Source: a virus
DNA: 21,747 bases
Reading direction: 5' to 3' (one strand)
Virus record (IMG/VR): IMGVR_UViG_3300020473_000141
Location: 1-21,747 of that record
Shown here: one piece after another, positions 13,867 to 19,516 of the stretch
Layout: each line of letters opens with the position of its first letter
Position numbering within the stretch: the first letter of the stretch is position 1
Program-made: the position numbers and the translations under genes
The notes under the pieces: model-generated
Told to the model about the DNA's origin: nothing
The model's input: only the letters and a program-made list of their open reading frames with translations
The model's database searches: none

Positions 13867-15573
13867 ATGGCTTTTAATAACATCCATACAAATCAACAAA
13901 TTAAAAATGGATTCCCTGCTGGTAGGGGAGGGAAATTTTCTAGAGATAGGTGGACTAGAATTGCTCAGATGACTGGTAATTATAACCAGTGGTTCTTGGA
14001 AGAAAATTTTAGGACTCCTAATTTTGCTGGCAAACAAAATAAAATAAAGATGATAAAGATAAAATGTCCTCAACATATTGTGGATTCTATAAATCTTCTT
14101 TATAATAAGGATGTTAGATGGAAAAAGTTTTTGCCTGGTGGCACTAGTCAAAATACCAATACTAAATTTGAAGCATATAAAGGTGCAGCAAAACCTCCTT
14201 CTGAGGGTGATTTATATGTTGATACAATGTGGCCATGGACTAGTGAGTGGCAACCAAGTGACAATACTAGAAGAGATGTAAAGGAAAGATATCAGATAAT
14301 AAGATTTATAGCAAGCGGTAAGACAGAAGGTAGTGCAAAAGTTTCTGCTGCTGCTATGACAAAATTACAAGAGACTGGTTCTGCTATTGTTTTTAGACAT
14401 GTTATTATAGGCAATCTTAAAAATCCTAAGAATGCAATAGACATTGCAAATCATAAACCATGTAGGGAAGAGTTAGATCGTGAATGGCAATCAGTAGCAG
14501 GAGTTCCATGTGACATGGGATGGATAGAGAACTTCTTTAAACAACAGAAAGCATTGTTGGCAGCTCTTGCTTCATGCTCAGGTAGTAATCAATTTGAAGA
14601 GTTTCAACGTGATGGTGATTTCATGAAGTTTATCACCGATGAATGGATAGGTTCCAAAAATCCTTCAGGAATTAAAGGAAAAGATAATTGGAACCCTGCT
14701 GATATATGGTTGATAAAAAATCAGAATCAACATATCAGAACTCTTAGATCTCTAATGAGTTCACCTGCTACTGGAAGTACAAGTTTTAGAAAGAGATTGT
14801 TTGCATCAAAGATAGATCAGTTTAATGCTAAGATGAGACAGTTGTTTAAGGACAAAGAGATCTGGGGAGTATCTTTGAAGTTGGTTACTCAGAAAGAAGC
14901 GAAGTGGGAATTTGTAAACGTTGATGATGCTTACTTTGCATCACTAGAGAGTAAACAATTTAAGTTAGGTACTGGATCTTATAAACCAGTATGCAAATTA
15001 TCTACAGAAACTAAAGAAGGTGCTGAGATATTTACTACTCAGGATAGTATTCTTTGGGTTGTTGATGGTGACGCACAGTATAAGTTTCAGGTTAAAGCAA
15101 ACACTAGTACTAAGAGAGATAATTTAAAATATGAAGCAACTCAAAAAGGATTTGGTGCTGCTAGATTAGGTAAGGCAACAGCAGAATATGTTGAAGGACT
15201 TATTACAGCATATAGATCTAGACATTTTAATCCAAAATACAAAGATTTTGAGAAATCAAACTCAGAATATCCTTATACTGGTGATGAATTTTTAGAATGG
15301 AAAGATAAGATTACTGAAATGGCAACGTTCCTTGACAAACAAGGAGTTGATTTAGATGGAGTTAAACCAGAAGATGCTTACAATAGAATAATGGGAGCAC
15401 AAGTAAATACTCCTCATGTTGCCAATAGTAAAGTCATGCAAATGGCATGGTTATGTACTATACTTTCTATTCATAAGGATGGTGATGATAATATTAATGA
15501 GTTTCTTACTGACTTAGTGTTTATGTCTAAGAAAGAAGGTAAACAATATGGTCCTTTTTTAAAGTTGTACTGA
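13867..15573 (+). CDS. Hypothetical protein, 568 aa, possible PD-(D/E)xK-like nuclease
   Basis: Starts at ATG 13867 (a TTG one codon earlier is also open). The N-terminus is basic (PAGRGGKFSRDRWTR). Around 159-181 there is SAAAMTKLQETGSAIVFRHV, a segment type I have seen in other large phage proteins. The interesting part is NWNPADIWLIK (D279) followed 57 residues later by IWGVSLK (S336-L-K338). This fits the layout of some restriction-like folds, where an aspartate is followed by a D/E/S-x-K. The C-terminal third is alpha/beta with YKFQVKANTSTKRDNLKYE. No signal or membrane segment. Function is not established; nuclease is a hypothesis only. It is followed by the KxDG protein with a 1-nt overlap. 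Confidence 0.72.
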   Translation: MAFNNIHTNQQIKNGFPAGRGGKFSRDRWTRIAQMTGNYNQWFLEENFRTPNFAGKQNKIKMIKIKCPQHIVDSINLLYNKDVRWKKFLPGGTSQNTNTKFEAYKGAAKPPSEGDLYVDTMWPWTSEWQPSDNTRRDVKERYQIIRFIASGKTEGSAKVSAAAMTKLQETGSAIVFRHVIIGNLKNPKNAIDIANHKPCREELDREWQSVAGVPCDMGWIENFFKQQKALLAALASCSGSNQFEEFQRDGDFMKFITDEWIGSKNPSGIKGKDNWNPADIWLIKNQNQHIRTLRSLMSSPATGSTSFRKRLFASKIDQFNAKMRQLFKDKEIWGVSLKLVTQKEAKWEFVNVDDAYFASLESKQFKLGTGSYKPVCKLSTETKEGAEIFTTQDSILWVVDGDAQYKFQVKANTSTKRDNLKYEATQKGFGAARLGKATAEYVEGLITAYRSRHFNPKYKDFEKSNSEYPYTGDEFLEWKDKITEMATFLDKQGVDLDGVKPEDAYNRIMGAQVNTPHVANSKVMQMAWLCTILSIHKDGDDNINEFLTDLVFMSKKEGKQYGPFLKLY

Positions 15574-16802
15574 TGTCTAAGAATACTCACCTAGAACACT
15601 TAGAAGATAGCATCTTAATTGATGGTACAGCAGGTGCTAAGGATGCTTTTGTATTCTTAGATGATCTTGCACGATCATTTAGTGGTAATACTAGCAGTAA
15701 CTTTACTGTTACTACAAAATGGGATGGTGCTCCTGCTATATTCTGTGGATTATATCCAGGAACAAATTCTTTTTTTGTTGGTACTAAGTCAGTCTTTAAT
15801 AAGGATGCAAAGATTAACTATACTAATGAAGATATTGAACGTAATCATGGACATGCTCCAGGACTAGTAAAGAAATTAAAAGATGCTTTAAAGTATCTAC
15901 CTAAACTAGGTATTACTGGTGTTGCACAGGGAGATTTGTTATTCACTGATGATAAGGGAACAGATATAATAAATGGTGTCAGTAATATAACTTTCAAACC
16001 TAATACTATTACATATTCTGTTGCTAAAGGAGATGCTTTATACAACAAAGTTAAGGCAGCAAAGATAGGAGTAGTATTTCATACATTTTATGAAGGACGT
16101 AGTATTGAATTTTTAAGTGCTAAGTTTGGATTTGATATATCTAAATTAAAAGAGCATGATGATATATTAGTTCTCAGTGCAGAGACAGGAGAACTTGGTA
16201 ACGATACTTTATTAACACAAGGAGAGAAGAATATTTTAATTGGGTTAAAGCAAAAGAGTACTAGACTTGTTAATAGTGCTTCTCCATTTTTAGATATTGT
16301 TTCTGAACAGATTAAAGCAAACGATCAATTAACTGTTGGACCTAAGTTGAAGGTATTTTTTAATAAGTATATTAGAGATGCAGTTGCTGTTCCTGCTGGT
16401 AATTTATTTGTAAAACAATTTACAACTTATTGGGAGGGAGAACTAGGTAAGGCAGTTGGTAAACTAAAGACACCTAAAGCAAAGGCAGCAAAGCTTCAGA
16501 AGATGTACGATGGACTTGATATAATTGAAAAGAATAAATCATCCTTAGCTAGTGCTGTTGATCTTTATAAAATCATACAAAATTCTAAGTCAATTTTTAT
16601 TAAGAAATTAGAGAAAGGAGAAAGATTTGGTACGTATCTCAGAACTGAGGATGGACTTGAGATGACATCTCCAGAAGGATATGTTATAATAAGGGACGGT
16701 ACACACGCTCGTAAATTAGTAGAACGTGCTAGATTTAGTGCTGCTAACTTCAAGAAGGATACTCTTCCAACTAAGAAATGGGTGGAAGGTGATGCAAAGT
16801 AA
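15573..16802 (+). CDS. KxDG nucleotidyltransferase-like (RNA/DNA ligase-like) protein, 409 aa
   Basis: The N-terminal domain shows the covalent nucleotidyltransferase signature. Motif I is TTKWDGAPAIF (K49-W-D-G52, the lysine that would take AMP). A motif III-like strand is GVAQGDLLF near 116-124 and a IIIa-like one is GVVFHTFYEG near 166-175. At the C-terminus a motif IV/V pair appears as SPEGYVIIRDG (E368-G369) and THARKLVERARF (K381). Between IIIa and IV lie about 190 residues, mostly helical, far more than in most ligases. Cyanophage homologues are annotated only as conserved hypothetical (DUF6267-like, from memory). The overlaps (1 nt before, 11 nt after) tie it to both neighbours. Activity and substrate are unproven. 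Confidence 0.8.
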   Translation: MSKNTHLEHLEDSILIDGTAGAKDAFVFLDDLARSFSGNTSSNFTVTTKWDGAPAIFCGLYPGTNSFFVGTKSVFNKDAKINYTNEDIERNHGHAPGLVKKLKDALKYLPKLGITGVAQGDLLFTDDKGTDIINGVSNITFKPNTITYSVAKGDALYNKVKAAKIGVVFHTFYEGRSIEFLSAKFGFDISKLKEHDDILVLSAETGELGNDTLLTQGEKNILIGLKQKSTRLVNSASPFLDIVSEQIKANDQLTVGPKLKVFFNKYIRDAVAVPAGNLFVKQFTTYWEGELGKAVGKLKTPKAKAAKLQKMYDGLDIIEKNKSSLASAVDLYKIIQNSKSIFIKKLEKGERFGTYLRTEDGLEMTSPEGYVIIRDGTHARKLVERARFSAANFKKDTLPTKKWVEGDAK

Positions 16803-17388
16803 ACGAATAGTGTTTACATTTGGTAGATTTAATCCACCAACTACAGGACACTTGAAACTTATAGAAGCAGTGGCTAAAGAGGCAGGACAAAAAGATGATT
16901 ATCGTATTGTTCCTAGCAGATCATTCAAAGCTGATAAGAACCCATTGAAAATTGATATTAAACTTGCATGGATGAAGAAGATGTTTCCTAAACATGCAGA
17001 TAATATTATAAGTACTCCAGATCTTAATGTTATTATTAAGGTCATGCAATCTTTTCAGGGAATACCTCCTGATGGTTATACTGATGTGTGTATGATTGTT
17101 GGATCTGATAGAGTTCAGGACTTTACTACCTTATTAAACAAGTATAATAGAGATCCTAATGATCCAGATAAGACAGTAGAATATGCTTTTAAAAGTATAG
17201 AGGTTAAGTCAGCAGGAGAACGAGATCCTGATAATGATAATGATGTTTCTGGTATGTCTGCTAGTAAAATGAGAGGATATGCTAAAGCTGGTAAGTGGGG
17301 AGAATTTCAAAATGCTCTTACTGGATTACTAAGTGCAGATGATGCAGCAAAACTTATGAGAGATGTTCGTAAAGGTCAAGGTTTATGA
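16792..17388 (+). CDS. Cytidylyltransferase-fold (NMNAT-like) adenylyltransferase
   Basis: 198 residues. The nucleotide-binding start is VFTFGRFNPPTTGHLKLI, where TTGH (17-20) replaces the usual HxGH. The middle carries IVGSDR (102-107), and GMSASKMR (154-161) matches the ISSTxIR-type motif that binds the triphosphate. These are hallmarks of NMN/nicotinate-mononucleotide, FMN and pantetheine-phosphate adenylyltransferases. Similar cyanophage proteins are labelled cytidylyltransferase or nicotinamide-nucleotide adenylyltransferase. NAD-type synthesis is possible; the exact substrate cannot be read off. ATG 16792 has GGTGGA 5 nt upstream; an in-frame ATG at 16726 lies inside the previous gene and is unlikely. 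Confidence 0.85.
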   Translation: MQSKRIVFTFGRFNPPTTGHLKLIEAVAKEAGQKDDYRIVPSRSFKADKNPLKIDIKLAWMKKMFPKHADNIISTPDLNVIIKVMQSFQGIPPDGYTDVCMIVGSDRVQDFTTLLNKYNRDPNDPDKTVEYAFKSIEVKSAGERDPDNDNDVSGMSASKMRGYAKAGKWGEFQNALTGLLSADDAAKLMRDVRKGQGL

Positions 17389-17597
17389 AAGACTTTAAGA
17401 AACTACGTGAACAAGCACTACGACAGCACTACCGTAAGAAGGAAGTGTTTGTTGAGGGTGACTATGTAATGAATGCCAACACAGGACAGAAAGGTAAGAT
17501 TCATAGGTCAGGTGTGAACTATGTTATCTGTGTCACTGAGAGTGGTGAGATGTTTCGTGCATGGGTAAAGGATATTAGAGCTATAAATAGAAATTGA
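17385..17597 (+). CDS. Small KOW-like beta protein, 70 aa
   Basis: ATGA overlap with the adenylyltransferase. A basic N-terminal helix (FKKLREQALRQHYRKKE) precedes a compact beta unit: VEGDYVMNANTGQKGKIHRSGVNYVICVTESG (in pieces: GDYV, TGQKGKI, NYVICV), then MFRAWVKDI. The GDYV..TGQ.GKI arrangement resembles KOW/SH3-like barrels, which often bind RNA or ribosomal proteins. Similar small domains occur in T4-like cyanophages; the role is unknown. A T4-late-type box sits in its last codons. Confidence 0.72.
   Translation: MKDFKKLREQALRQHYRKKEVFVEGDYVMNANTGQKGKIHRSGVNYVICVTESGEMFRAWVKDIRAINRN
17582..17589 (+). promoter_or_regulatory. Possible late promoter box TATAAATA
   Basis: Exact match to the T4 late -10 element TATAAATA, inside the end of the upstream gene. 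Transcription would begin near 17595, almost at the ATG 17597, leaving no ribosome binding site for it unless a later in-frame ATG (17609 or 17615) is used. This makes it weaker than the two boxes downstream. Confidence 0.35.
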
Positions 17598-18007
17598 TGA
17601 GTATAAAAATGACAATGAAGTACCAAGATCCTGTTAATACTGTCCAGTTTGAGGATGAGTATGCAAAGAATCTCATGAAGATGTATGAAAATTGGATGGA
17701 TGGAGACACTTTTCAAGGAACTGAAATGCCATCTGCTGATCAATTAGCAGAAGAACCTTTCTCTGGAATGGATCCTCAGTCTAATGGTGCAGAAATAGAA
17801 GATACTACAAAGAAAAAGAAAAAAATAGAGAAAGGAACTTATCTTGGTAAGAATGAAACTGCCCCTAGTTATGATTCAGATGGATATGCAGAGGAAGTTG
17901 AAGAAAGAGAAGAGTATGAATTAAATGGTGAGACATATGTTATAGAAAAGATTAAAGGAAAAGGTTGGCAGAAAGGATATAAAAAGAGTAAGAGTAAGGG
18001 TTATTAG
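17597..18007 (+). CDS. Hypothetical protein, 136 aa, acidic core and lysine-rich tail
   Basis: ATG 17597 overlaps the previous stop (TGATG). The N-terminal half is helical (DEYAKNLMKMYENWMDGDTF). A lysine run (TTKKKKKIEKGTYL) lies near 70-83, an acidic stretch (EEVEEREEYELNGETYVIE) at about 99-117, and the tail is strongly basic (GKGWQKGYKKSKSKGY). Low-complexity charged blocks suggest a disordered or DNA-binding-type protein, possibly packaged in the head. I do not recognise the family. Confidence 0.72.
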   Translation: MSIKMTMKYQDPVNTVQFEDEYAKNLMKMYENWMDGDTFQGTEMPSADQLAEEPFSGMDPQSNGAEIEDTTKKKKKIEKGTYLGKNETAPSYDSDGYAEEVEEREEYELNGETYVIEKIKGKGWQKGYKKSKSKGY

Positions 18008-18008
18008 A

Positions 18009-18137
18009 ATGAAATCCTACTCTCAATTCCTAGAAGAATCTAAAAAGAAGAAAGAGAAACGTAAACCTACGGTTGAAGTTATGCCTACCATTAAAGATGG
18101 AGAGAAAGGTATGACTACTAAACCAGATAATAGCTAA
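18009..18137 (+). CDS. 42-aa peptide with capsid-targeting-like N-terminus
   Basis: Starts MKSYSQFLEES, close to the N-terminal capsid-targeting sequence of T4 internal proteins (MKTYQEFIAEA). There, the prohead protease gp21 cuts after a hydrophobic-x-E. Here LEE/S would be the site at residues 8-11. The rest is basic and polar (KKKKEKRKPTVEV, then GEKGMTTKPDNS). It could be a small internal head protein or a leftover of one. It lies 1 nt after the preceding stop and overlaps the next gene by 1 nt (TAATG). Confidence 0.6.
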   Translation: MKSYSQFLEESKKKKEKRKPTVEVMPTIKDGEKGMTTKPDNS

Positions 18138-18688: not shown

Positions 18689-19516
18689 ATGGCTGTTTTT
18701 GGAACTACGGATGCTGCTGCATTCTCAAACACAGTTGCTGTCACTCAAAACGACGCAACAGTAACAAAGAACGCTGCCGACACAGTAGTTGGTGGTGATG
18801 TACTTGAAATTGATGGTGTTAATTACATCGTTAAGACTATAACAAGTACAACAAGTATTGAATTACACAAAGTATATGCAGGAGCTACTAATAATACTCT
18901 TGCTGCTGCTAAAGTAATCAAGCGTACACCTCCAAGAGCAGTTGCGGAATTCGTTATACTGGGTGGTGATAGTAACAGTTATGACCTTGTGTTTGCTGAC
19001 GCAACAGAAGGTTCTCTTGCTGAGAACAAATCACGTGGTATAAACGGACCTGGTTGGTGGCAGTATCGTTCCTTTACGGATCATGCTGGTAACACACGCC
19101 ATAAAGCTGAATGTATAGCAGCAGTCACAGTTGCATCTAGTGTATCTGGTGACCTTGCTGATGATACTATCGCTGCTGATGTTGCATCTGCTGTAACTAT
19201 CACTGGACAACCTGGTAATTCTTCTTCTAGTTCTGGTGCTGGAACATTCGCAGTTACTACAAGTACAACTGGTACACCTGGAACACTTGCTTATGTTTGG
19301 CAACGTCAGAAGGCAGGTACTAAGCGTTGGGTTAACATCACTGCTAACCTTGACACAGGTATCACATACGCTGATTTCGCTACTGCAACTCTTGCATACA
19401 GTGGACTTGCTAATGATACATTAGATGGTCAAAACTATAGAGTTAAGATCACATCTGCTAATGGTACAGAAGAAGTTATCTCTAATGGAGCAGGAACCTT
19501 AACATTCTCATCATAA
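18689..19516 (+). CDS. Probable virion structural protein with Ig-like C-terminal domain
   Basis: 275 residues, rich in Ala, Thr, Gly and Ser, low in Lys. N-terminal ~90 residues are a beta domain (VTQNDATVTKNAADTVVGG, ILGGDSNSYDLVFADATEG at 91-109). Residues about 113-143 hold the compact GPGWWQYRSFTDHAG. A Ser/Gly linker (GNSSSSSGAG) near 181 leads to a domain ending in LAYVWQRQKAGTKRWVNI and QNYRVKITSANG with ISNGAG, an Ig-like fold with its W and Y core. Ig-like domains are common on phage surfaces (T4 Hoc, tail fibres). With its own late promoter it is likely a virion or surface protein; the specific role is unknown. Confidence 0.82.
   Translation: MAVFGTTDAAAFSNTVAVTQNDATVTKNAADTVVGGDVLEIDGVNYIVKTITSTTSIELHKVYAGATNNTLAAAKVIKRTPPRAVAEFVILGGDSNSYDLVFADATEGSLAENKSRGINGPGWWQYRSFTDHAGNTRHKAECIAAVTVASSVSGDLADDTIAADVASAVTITGQPGNSSSSSGAGTFAVTTSTTGTPGTLAYVWQRQKAGTKRWVNITANLDTGITYADFATATLAYSGLANDTLDGQNYRVKITSANGTEEVISNGAGTLTFSS

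What the first reader, a model, noticed from the sequence alone, without database searches (positions are those of the whole stretch)
13867..17388. Unexplained nucleotidyl-transfer module inside the replication cluster
Three larger genes overlap end to end: a 568-aa unknown with a nuclease-like residue pair, a KxDG ligase-like protein, and an NMNAT-like adenylyltransferase. Overlaps of 1 and 11 nt suggest joint translation. A possible joint task is RNA or DNA end repair, a nucleic-acid modification, or an NAD-linked counter-defence (an adenylyltransferase could rebuild NAD or a cofactor, and a ligase-like enzyme could seal nicked RNA). The set lies between mazG and a late region and has no T4 counterpart that I know of. 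This is the best candidate for an undescribed system.
Basis: partly seen in the sequence, partly recalled or inferred. Interest (0 to 1): 0.8.

Follow-up and report, generated by a model that had tools for sequence, protein, structure and literature searches.

The report
Phage nuclease, ligase-like, adenylyltransferase gene trio
This marine T4-like phage carries three overlapping genes, a nuclease-like protein, an unrecognised member of the DNA/RNA-ligase superfamily and an NAD-type adenylyltransferase, that are kept together across marine phages and in many relatives carry an N-terminal tag resembling the one that sends proteins into the phage head, so they probably form a nucleic-acid end-processing kit that stands in for the DNA ligase these phages lack.

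Summary
In detail: A 13867-15573 (568 aa), B 15573-16802 (409 aa) and C 16792-17388 (198 aa), overlapping by 1 and 11 nt. In IMG/VR loci found by B, C follows B in 100/100. An A-family protein precedes B in 69/99; nearly all the others hold a second family with similar residues.

B is Pfam DUF6267. Its AlphaFold model (pLDDT 87) and 163 distinct homologues show the ordered motifs of covalent nucleotidyltransferases (KxDG, EGxV, K). 27 of its top 50 PDB fold matches are ligases or capping enzymes, though none is individually significant. Ten of ten tested Kyanoviridae genomes carry DUF6267 and lack canonical DNA ligase. C keeps the NMNAT-type catalytic residues. A carries an invariant E...PxD...SLK set, but its fold matches only its own family; other proteins found in its position match Type II restriction-enzyme models.

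New here: many B and C relatives begin with a T4-type capsid-targeting-like sequence (B 15/33, C 12/18, other genes 8/390). All three Kyanoviridae C proteins reported in virions carry it. The window copies do not.

Best reading: a nucleic-acid end-processing module with an unrecognised ligase-superfamily enzyme, delivered in the head in relatives. Substrate and joint task are inferred. The NAD-salvage reading is weak.

The parts
13867..15573 (+). Gene A, 568 aa: PD-(D/E)XK-like nuclease candidate (phrog_1462). Invariant residues E169, P277-x-D279, S336-L337-K338.
   Evidence: E169 117/117, D279 121/121, SLK 121/121; AlphaFold pLDDT 83. No PDB or BFVD match outside its own family, so the fold is unconfirmed.
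15573..16802 (+). Gene B, 409 aa: DUF6267, predicted covalent KxDG nucleotidyltransferase (ligase/capping superfamily) with a helical insertion (about 205-347) and no C-terminal OB domain.
   Evidence: Pfam PF19782 E=4e-114; model pLDDT 87; 27 of the top 50 PDB matches are DNA/RNA ligases or mRNA guanylyltransferase, best E 0.25; K49, D51, G52, Q119, D121, E368, K381 invariant in all distinct homologues with a residue there.
15714..15734 (+). Motif I of B (TKWDGAP; nucleotide-accepting lysine K49 inferred)
   Evidence: K49, D51, G52 in 160/160; K49 at the end of strand 44-49.
16674..16685 (+). Motif IV of B (E368-G-Y-V)
   Evidence: E368, G369, V371 in 158/158; start of strand 369-374.
16713..16718 (+). 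Motif V lysine of B (K381-L)
   Evidence: K381 in 158/158; strand 378-382.
16792..17388 (+). Gene C, 198 aa: HxGH-type nucleotidyltransferase, nearest to NMN adenylyltransferases; short form without tag or C-terminal domain.
   Evidence: PF01467 E=1.2e-7; TIGR00482 5e-7, below its cut-off; G11, H20, S156, R161 invariant in 135-136 distinct homologues; profile matches to NadR and MJ0541 NMNAT structures at E 0.008-0.009.
17385..17597 (+). Gene D, 70 aa: stand-alone version of the C-terminal domain fused to C in long-form relatives (phrog_4808, labelled 'ribonucleotide reductase' in PHROGs).
   Evidence: phrog_4808 1e-35 and phrog_395 (cytidyltransferase family, positions 208-270) 1e-14; fused in L185, L188, L189.
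17597..18007 (+). Next ORF of the overlapping chain (phrog_4359, unknown function)

Best explanation
The three genes form a nucleic-acid end-processing module of marine T4-like phages. Gene B (DUF6267) is an unrecognised member of the covalent nucleotidyltransferase superfamily and most likely a minimal polynucleotide ligase: lysine 49 takes AMP, passes it to a 5'-phosphate end and seals a nick or break in DNA or RNA. It would fill the place of the gp30-type DNA ligase that these phages lack. Gene A occupies a variable nuclease position and would cut or trim the ends. Gene C is an NMNAT-like adenylyltransferase that supplies or recycles a nucleotide cofactor; its substrate is unknown. In many relatives B, C and sometimes the gene in position A carry an N-terminal capsid-targeting-like tag, which suggests the module is packed in the head and enters with the DNA. 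In the window's phage the tag is absent and the enzymes should act in the infected cell. Shown by computation: gene order, B's motif set and fold resemblance, C's family, the tag enrichment. From literature: presence of C homologues in virions. Inferred: catalysis, substrate, joint action, packaging of B and A.
For: B: Pfam DUF6267; confident model with motifs I, III, IIIa, IV and V on the expected strands; 27 of the top 50 PDB matches are ligases or capping enzymes; catalytic residues invariant in about 160 distinct homologues. Absence of canonical ligase: PF01068 absent from 10/10 Kyanoviridae records and from 9 further IMG/VR contigs, several of them fragments; PF01653 and PF09414 absent from 9/9; DUF6267 present in 10/10; gp30 listed in a gene group many of whose members are missing from cyanophages (PMC2993671). 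Linkage: B-C 100/100 and A-B 69/99 in loci found by B; S-PM2 fuses the C-terminal half of B to C; an A'-type protein is fused to B in L041; phrog_455 spans both B and C. Position A: other occupants match Type II restriction-enzyme models, E 3e-11, 2e-10 and 1e-9. Neighbours in relatives: adenylate kinase beside B (L255, L256), HAD phosphatase (L174), SNase (L278). Tag: B 15/33, C 12/18, others 8/390; C proteins of S-SZBM1, S-CREM2 and S-SCSM1, all reported in virions, carry it.
Against: No single fold match of B reaches E 1e-3, and profile-profile comparison with viral DNA and RNA ligases finds no relation. B has no OB domain or motif VI, so it may not be a stand-alone DNA ligase. XaC1 has both B and a canonical DNA ligase. 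Host ligase could serve these phages. A's nuclease fold is unconfirmed. B and A were not reported in the S-SZBM1 virion, where C was. The modules are split in several isolates. S-CREM2 carries a gene labelled 'DNA ligase', but it is a 167-aa DUF6433 protein without KxDG.
Confidence: 0.45

Rival explanations
1. RNA repair or RNA-end modification: B is an RNA ligase or RNA-adenylylating enzyme that mends tRNA or mRNA cut by host defence nucleases, with A trimming ends and C supplying a cofactor.
For: B lacks an OB domain, as RNA ligases can; T4 Rnl1, Rnl2 and Naegleria RNA ligase and mRNA guanylyltransferase are among its fold matches. T4 internal proteins carried by capsid-targeting sequences are described as counter-defence proteins (PMC3012670).
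Against: No polynucleotide kinase was found as a standard neighbour; no profile relation to the RNA_ligase sequences tested; B sits next to the DNA replication cluster.
Confidence: 0.22
2. NAD-linked function: C is an NMN adenylyltransferase that rebuilds NAD+, either against NAD-depleting defence or to feed an NAD-using B.
For: C is nearest to NMNATs. Earlier authors called homologues NMNAT and proposed a role in NAD levels. Delivery in the virion would suit an early counter-defence.
Against: NAMPT-type PF04095, of the family used by both the Namat and the Nampt route, is absent from 9/9 Kyanoviridae records. C has T in place of the first His of HxGH in 124/136. No PADLOC match. Profile scores are far below NMNAT cut-offs.
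Confidence: 0.13
3. A is an independent nuclease that degrades host or rival DNA; B and C are unrelated core functions, and the overlaps reflect compact late-operon packing only.
For: Position A is occupied by several different families while B-C stay the same; B and C lie apart in some isolates.
Against: B-C adjacency in 100/100 loci with short overlaps; two different fusions; shared tag enrichment.
Confidence: 0.15
4. C (and the 70-aa D domain) is mainly a head component, so the block is the start of a head-assembly operon with retained enzyme folds.
For: C homologues are in virions; D-type domain fused to tagged C; phrog_613 head protein follows.
Against: Catalytic residues of B and C are invariant, which argues for enzyme activity.
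Confidence: 0.08

Closest known systems
ATP/NAD-dependent DNA ligases and RNA ligases (T4 gp30, T4 Rnl1/Rnl2, LigA; covalent nucleotidyltransferase superfamily)
   Same: KxDG motif I, D/E-containing motif III, EGxV motif IV and motif V lysine in the same order and strand context; these structures dominate the fold matches of B.
   Different: No detectable sequence-profile relation; no OB domain or motif VI; helical insertion of about 140 residues between motifs IIIa and IV; N-terminal HxxHxED motif.
Pfam PF19782 (DUF6267), family of unknown function
   Same: B is a full-length member.
   Different: The family carries no function; the ligase-superfamily assignment, the tagged forms and the gene context are added here. 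No paper in the library mentions the family.
Cyanophage virion-associated NMNAT/cytidylyltransferase (S-SZBM1_140, S-SCSM1 ORF91, S-CREM2 gp154)
   Same: Same nucleotidyltransferase domain as C.
   Different: Those proteins are long (about 285-409 aa), with a capsid-targeting-like N-terminus and a D-type C-terminal domain; the window C is short and untagged.
T4 internal proteins with capsid targeting sequence (IPI-IPIII)
   Same: N-terminal M-x-[FY]xx[FL][LI]xE-like tag in many relatives of B, C and position-A genes; phages with a gp21-type prohead protease (S-SZBM1_178).
   Different: Cargo are predicted enzymes; cleavage and packaging of B and A are not shown; the window copies have no tag.
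PD-(D/E)XK nucleases / Type II restriction enzymes
   Same: A has E, PxD and xxK invariant; other occupants of the same position match REase_II models.
   Different: A has S instead of D/E in the xxK motif, a 59-residue gap between D and K with helices in it, and no fold match to known nucleases.
Phage NAD+ reconstitution pathways (NARP1 with Namat; Nampt plus NMNAT salvage)
   Same: C resembles NMNAT.
   Different: No NAMPT-family partner in 9/9 Kyanoviridae tested.

Membership tests
Covalent nucleotidyltransferase (ligase/capping) superfamily - gene B | Motif I KxDG | tested here: met
   K49, D51, G52 in 160/160 distinct homologues with a residue there
Covalent nucleotidyltransferase (ligase/capping) superfamily - gene B | Motifs III, IV (EGxV) and V (K) in order on beta strands | tested here: met
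   D121, E368-G369-x-V371, K381 invariant; strands 117-124, 369-374, 378-382
Covalent nucleotidyltransferase (ligase/capping) superfamily - gene B | Nucleotidyltransferase fold | tested here: inconclusive
   27 of the top 50 PDB fold matches are of this superfamily, but best E 0.25, probability at most 0.38
Covalent nucleotidyltransferase (ligase/capping) superfamily - gene B | Lysine-NMP adduct | not testable with these tools
   Needs biochemistry
DNA ligase (PF01068 / gp30 type) | Sequence-family match | tested here: not met
   No Pfam DNA ligase match for B; hhalign with 26 viral ligases shows none
DNA ligase (PF01068 / gp30 type) | C-terminal OB domain with motif VI | tested here: not met
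   Only about 28 residues follow motif V
PD-(D/E)XK nuclease - gene A | D and (D/E)xK catalytic residues plus helix E | tested here: inconclusive
   E169, PxD279 and SLK338 invariant, but S replaces D/E
PD-(D/E)XK nuclease - gene A | Fold | tested here: inconclusive
   No match to a solved nuclease; only its own family in BFVD
HxGH nucleotidyltransferase (CTP_transf_like) - gene C | (H/T)xGH and SxSxxR motifs, PF01467 above cut-off | tested here: met
   PF01467 32.5 bits against cut-off 21; H20, S156, R161 136/136
NMN adenylyltransferase proper - gene C | NCBIfam equivalog cut-off | tested here: not met
   TIGR00482 30 bits against cut-off 112
NAD+ reconstitution (NARP1 / Nampt salvage) | NAMPT-family partner in the genome | tested here: not met
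   PF04095 absent from 9/9 Kyanoviridae records; the window's own phage is only held as a 21.7-kb fragment
T4-type capsid-targeted internal protein | N-terminal capsid-targeting-like sequence in the window copies | tested here: not met
   A starts MAFNNIHT, B MSKNTHLEHLED, C MQSKRIVF
T4-type capsid-targeted internal protein | Same in relatives | tested here: met
   B 15/33, C 12/18 against 8/390 for other genes
T4-type capsid-targeted internal protein | Presence in virion and cleavage after the tag | not tested
   C in virions from literature; cleavage not examined; B and A not listed for S-SZBM1

The most novel reading that the evidence does not exclude
T4-like marine phages pack a DNA/RNA repair kit (exchangeable nuclease, DUF6267 ligase, NMNAT-like enzyme, at times adenylate kinase or phosphatase) into the head by a removable targeting tag and deliver it with the genome, so that incoming DNA or host RNA is trimmed and sealed before any phage gene is expressed. 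The cyanophage lineage of the window has shed the tag and uses the same enzymes inside the cell as its replacement for gp30.
Probability: 0.2. Interest if true: 0.88.

Novelty: new variant of a known kind. Interest (0 to 1): 0.62.

Why it matters
DUF6267 is found in nearly all sequenced T4-like cyanophages, an abundant group of ocean viruses, yet has no assigned function. If it is a ligase-superfamily enzyme, it would explain how these phages manage without the gp30 ligase and gives a direct enzyme assay. The capsid-targeting-like tags link a set of 'hypothetical' genes to the virion, offer a simple explanation for why NMNAT-like proteins turn up in cyanophage virion proteomes, and predict which further proteins should be found there.

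Tried and rejected
Sequence and profile searches of A and B against PDB: nothing significant. Foldseek of A against PDB: nothing; against BFVD: only its own family. hhalign of A against the second position-A family A': no relation, so these may be unrelated families sharing a residue pattern. hhalign of B against viral DNA and RNA ligases: no relation; motifs III and IIIa line up, but the score is at chance level. NAD reconstitution: partner missing. Defence systems: PADLOC finds nothing for A, B or C. Idea that the S-CREM2 'DNA ligase' gp190 undermines the ligase-replacement reading: it is a 167-aa DUF6433 protein without KxDG. Idea that DUF6433 is a detached ligase N-terminal domain: not significant, and Cr30 has both DUF6433 and a ligase. 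S-CBWM1's reported NMNAT is a different, untagged protein outside Kyanoviridae and does not count for the tag rule. Literature searches for DUF6267 and for 'cytitidyltransferase' in cyanophages: none.
Full report
Observation. The three ORFs lie as described: A 13867-15573, B 15573-16802, C 16792-17388, with 1-nt and 11-nt overlaps. They follow gp43, uvsX, gp41 and mazG. The overlapping chain continues past C into a 70-aa ORF (D) and a 136-aa ORF, and a phrog_613 head protein lies at 18689.

Conservation. tblastn in 50,697 phage records finds B in 471, A in 99 and C in 538; A evolves fast, so 99 is a lower bound. In IMG/VR loci found by B, C follows in 100/100 and A-family proteins precede in 69/99; counting each distinct B once, 77/77 and 59/80. 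Twenty-seven of the 31 remaining upstream genes in the pooled set form one second family (A'), with its own invariant E103, D248 and SLK278. These counts are biased towards close relatives because the loci were fetched with the window proteins. Exceptions among isolates: ACG-2014f (B at 43 kb, C at 139 kb), S-CREM2 (58.9 and 124.6 kb) and S-SCSM1 (221 and 88.8 kb). In S-SCSM1 a protein with the same PAD...GVSLKK pattern as A precedes C directly.

Fusions. S-PM2 has B split, with its C-terminal half fused to C. L041 has an A'-type protein fused to B in one 869-aa ORF. phrog_455 covers a B-like and a C-like segment. In long-form C proteins a C-terminal domain related to ORF D is fused.

Gene B. 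Pfam DUF6267, E 4e-114. The AlphaFold model from 47 sequences has mean pLDDT 87. Motif I K49-W-D-G ends strand 44-49; motif III (Q119-G-D121) lies in strand 117-124; a FHTFY segment with H170 and Y173 in strand 165-174 corresponds to motif IIIa; E368-G-Y-V starts strand 369-374 and K381 lies in strand 378-382. Residues 216-347 form a helical insertion, which shorter homologues lack or reduce. Across 163 distinct homologues K49, D51, G52, K72, Q119, D121, Y148, H170, Y173, E368, G369, V371 and K381 are invariant wherever a residue is aligned. Foldseek against PDB gives no match below E 1e-3, but by my count 27 of the top 50 are NAD+ or ATP DNA ligases, RNA ligases or mRNA guanylyltransferase; most of the others (CorA, condensin, long-helix proteins) match the helices. 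Sequence-profile comparison with ligases is negative. I therefore place B in the superfamily by motifs plus fold, and do not call it a member of a known ligase family.

Missing ligase. DNA_ligase_A_M (PF01068) is absent from 10/10 Kyanoviridae records and from nine IMG/VR contigs, several of which are fragments. NAD-dependent ligase (PF01653) and RNA_ligase (PF09414) are absent from 9/9 Kyanoviridae. DUF6267 is present in all ten Kyanoviridae. The PF01068 search does find ligases in XaC1, Munch and Cr30, so it works. XaC1 has both, so B is not strictly exclusive with a canonical ligase.

Gene C. PF01467 above cut-off; nearest curated families are NMN adenylyltransferases, far below their cut-offs. 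Catalytic H20, S156 and R161 are invariant in 136 distinct homologues, while the first His of HxGH is Thr in 124. Homologues have been reported in virions of S-SZBM1 (with downstream genes 139 and 136; A 142 and B 141 are not in the table), S-SCSM1 and S-CREM2.

Gene A. No family match beyond phrog_1462 and two weak PHROG matches of unknown function. Residues E169, P277, D279 and S336-L337-K338 are invariant in 117-121 distinct homologues, which resembles a PD-(D/E)XK set with S in place of the acidic residue. Fold searches do not confirm it. Independent support that the position holds nucleases: the S-CAM3, L279 and L281 occupants match Type II restriction-enzyme models (E 3e-11, 2e-10, 1e-9), with a weaker match for L118 (5e-4).

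Capsid-targeting-like tags. While aligning C I saw that long-form relatives begin with sequences such as MKKFSTFISEA, resembling the capsid targeting sequence of T4 internal proteins (propeptides of 10-20 residues in T4 head proteins and IPs; PMC5694885; PMC3012670; the T4 consensus itself is from my own knowledge). A pattern written from these examples was then applied, in slightly simplified form, to 36 loci fetched afterwards from genome assemblies: B 15/33, C 12/18, genes directly upstream of B 6/21, directly downstream 5/16, all other genes 8/390; Fisher p 2e-13, 6e-14, 2e-5 and 5e-5; shuffled expectation 0.2 of 33 for B and 0.06 of 18 for C. The loci are partly related, so the p values overstate independence. 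Tagged B typically reads M..F..(L/I)xE(S/A)KNTHLEHLED, and the window B begins MSKNTHLEHLED: the same sequence with the tag gone. After seeing the tag in S-SZBM1 and S-CREM2 I looked up S-SCSM1, whose virion-detected protein proved to start MKSFLQFLKEA. Packaging of B and A remains a prediction.

Neighbours in relatives. A tagged adenylate kinase lies directly downstream of B in L255 and L256; a tagged HAD phosphatase lies between A and B in L174; a staphylococcal-nuclease-like protein follows B in L278. An AMP-recycling kinase would fit an enzyme that releases AMP, but this is inference.

Function. The content (nuclease position, ligase-superfamily enzyme, adenylyltransferase, occasional kinase or phosphatase) points to nucleic-acid end processing. 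I favour nick or end sealing by B as replacement for gp30, with RNA repair as the main rival. NAD salvage is weakened by the missing NAMPT-type partner.

Novelty. C and its virion association are known. DUF6267 as a ligase-superfamily enzyme, the conserved A-B-C module with an exchangeable nuclease position, and the tagged forms were not found in the literature searched. The library covers open-licence papers only.

Noticed in passing
window 17385-17597: The 70-aa ORF D is in a family labelled 'ribonucleotide reductase alpha subunit' or NrdB (phrog_4808; S-PM2, S-CAM3). It is far too short and is homologous to the C-terminal domain of long-form C proteins, so the label is probably wrong.
   Followed up: partly
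L294:18930-19433 (S-CREM2 gp190): Annotated 'DNA ligase' but is a 167-aa DUF6433 protein without KxDG; tblastn finds relatives in 483 phage records. A weak likeness to the N-terminal domain of viral DNA ligases is not significant.
   Followed up: partly
window 18009-18137: 42-aa ORF starting MKSYSQFLEESKKKK, a capsid-targeting-like N-terminus, shortly before the head-protein gene at 18689.
   Followed up: no
L255:1239-1826, L256:9194-9772: Adenylate kinase (PF00406, E about 1e-37) with a capsid-targeting-like N-terminus directly downstream of B: a phage adenylate kinase apparently addressed to the head.
   Followed up: partly
L279:2395-3384, L281:2320-3324: Proteins matching Type II restriction-enzyme models with capsid-targeting-like N-termini directly upstream of B.
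   Followed up: partly
L174:3549-4256: HAD-type phosphatase with capsid-targeting-like N-terminus between A and B.
   Followed up: no
L178:3942-6884 (981 aa), L256:10735-13596 (953 aa), L277:4044-6830 (928 aa): C occurs as one domain of very long proteins, some tagged at the N-terminus; the remaining 700-800 residues were not analysed (in Melnitz-2 they include DUF5824).
   Followed up: no
L155, L156: A is followed directly by tagged C with no B between them, as in S-SCSM1.
   Followed up: no
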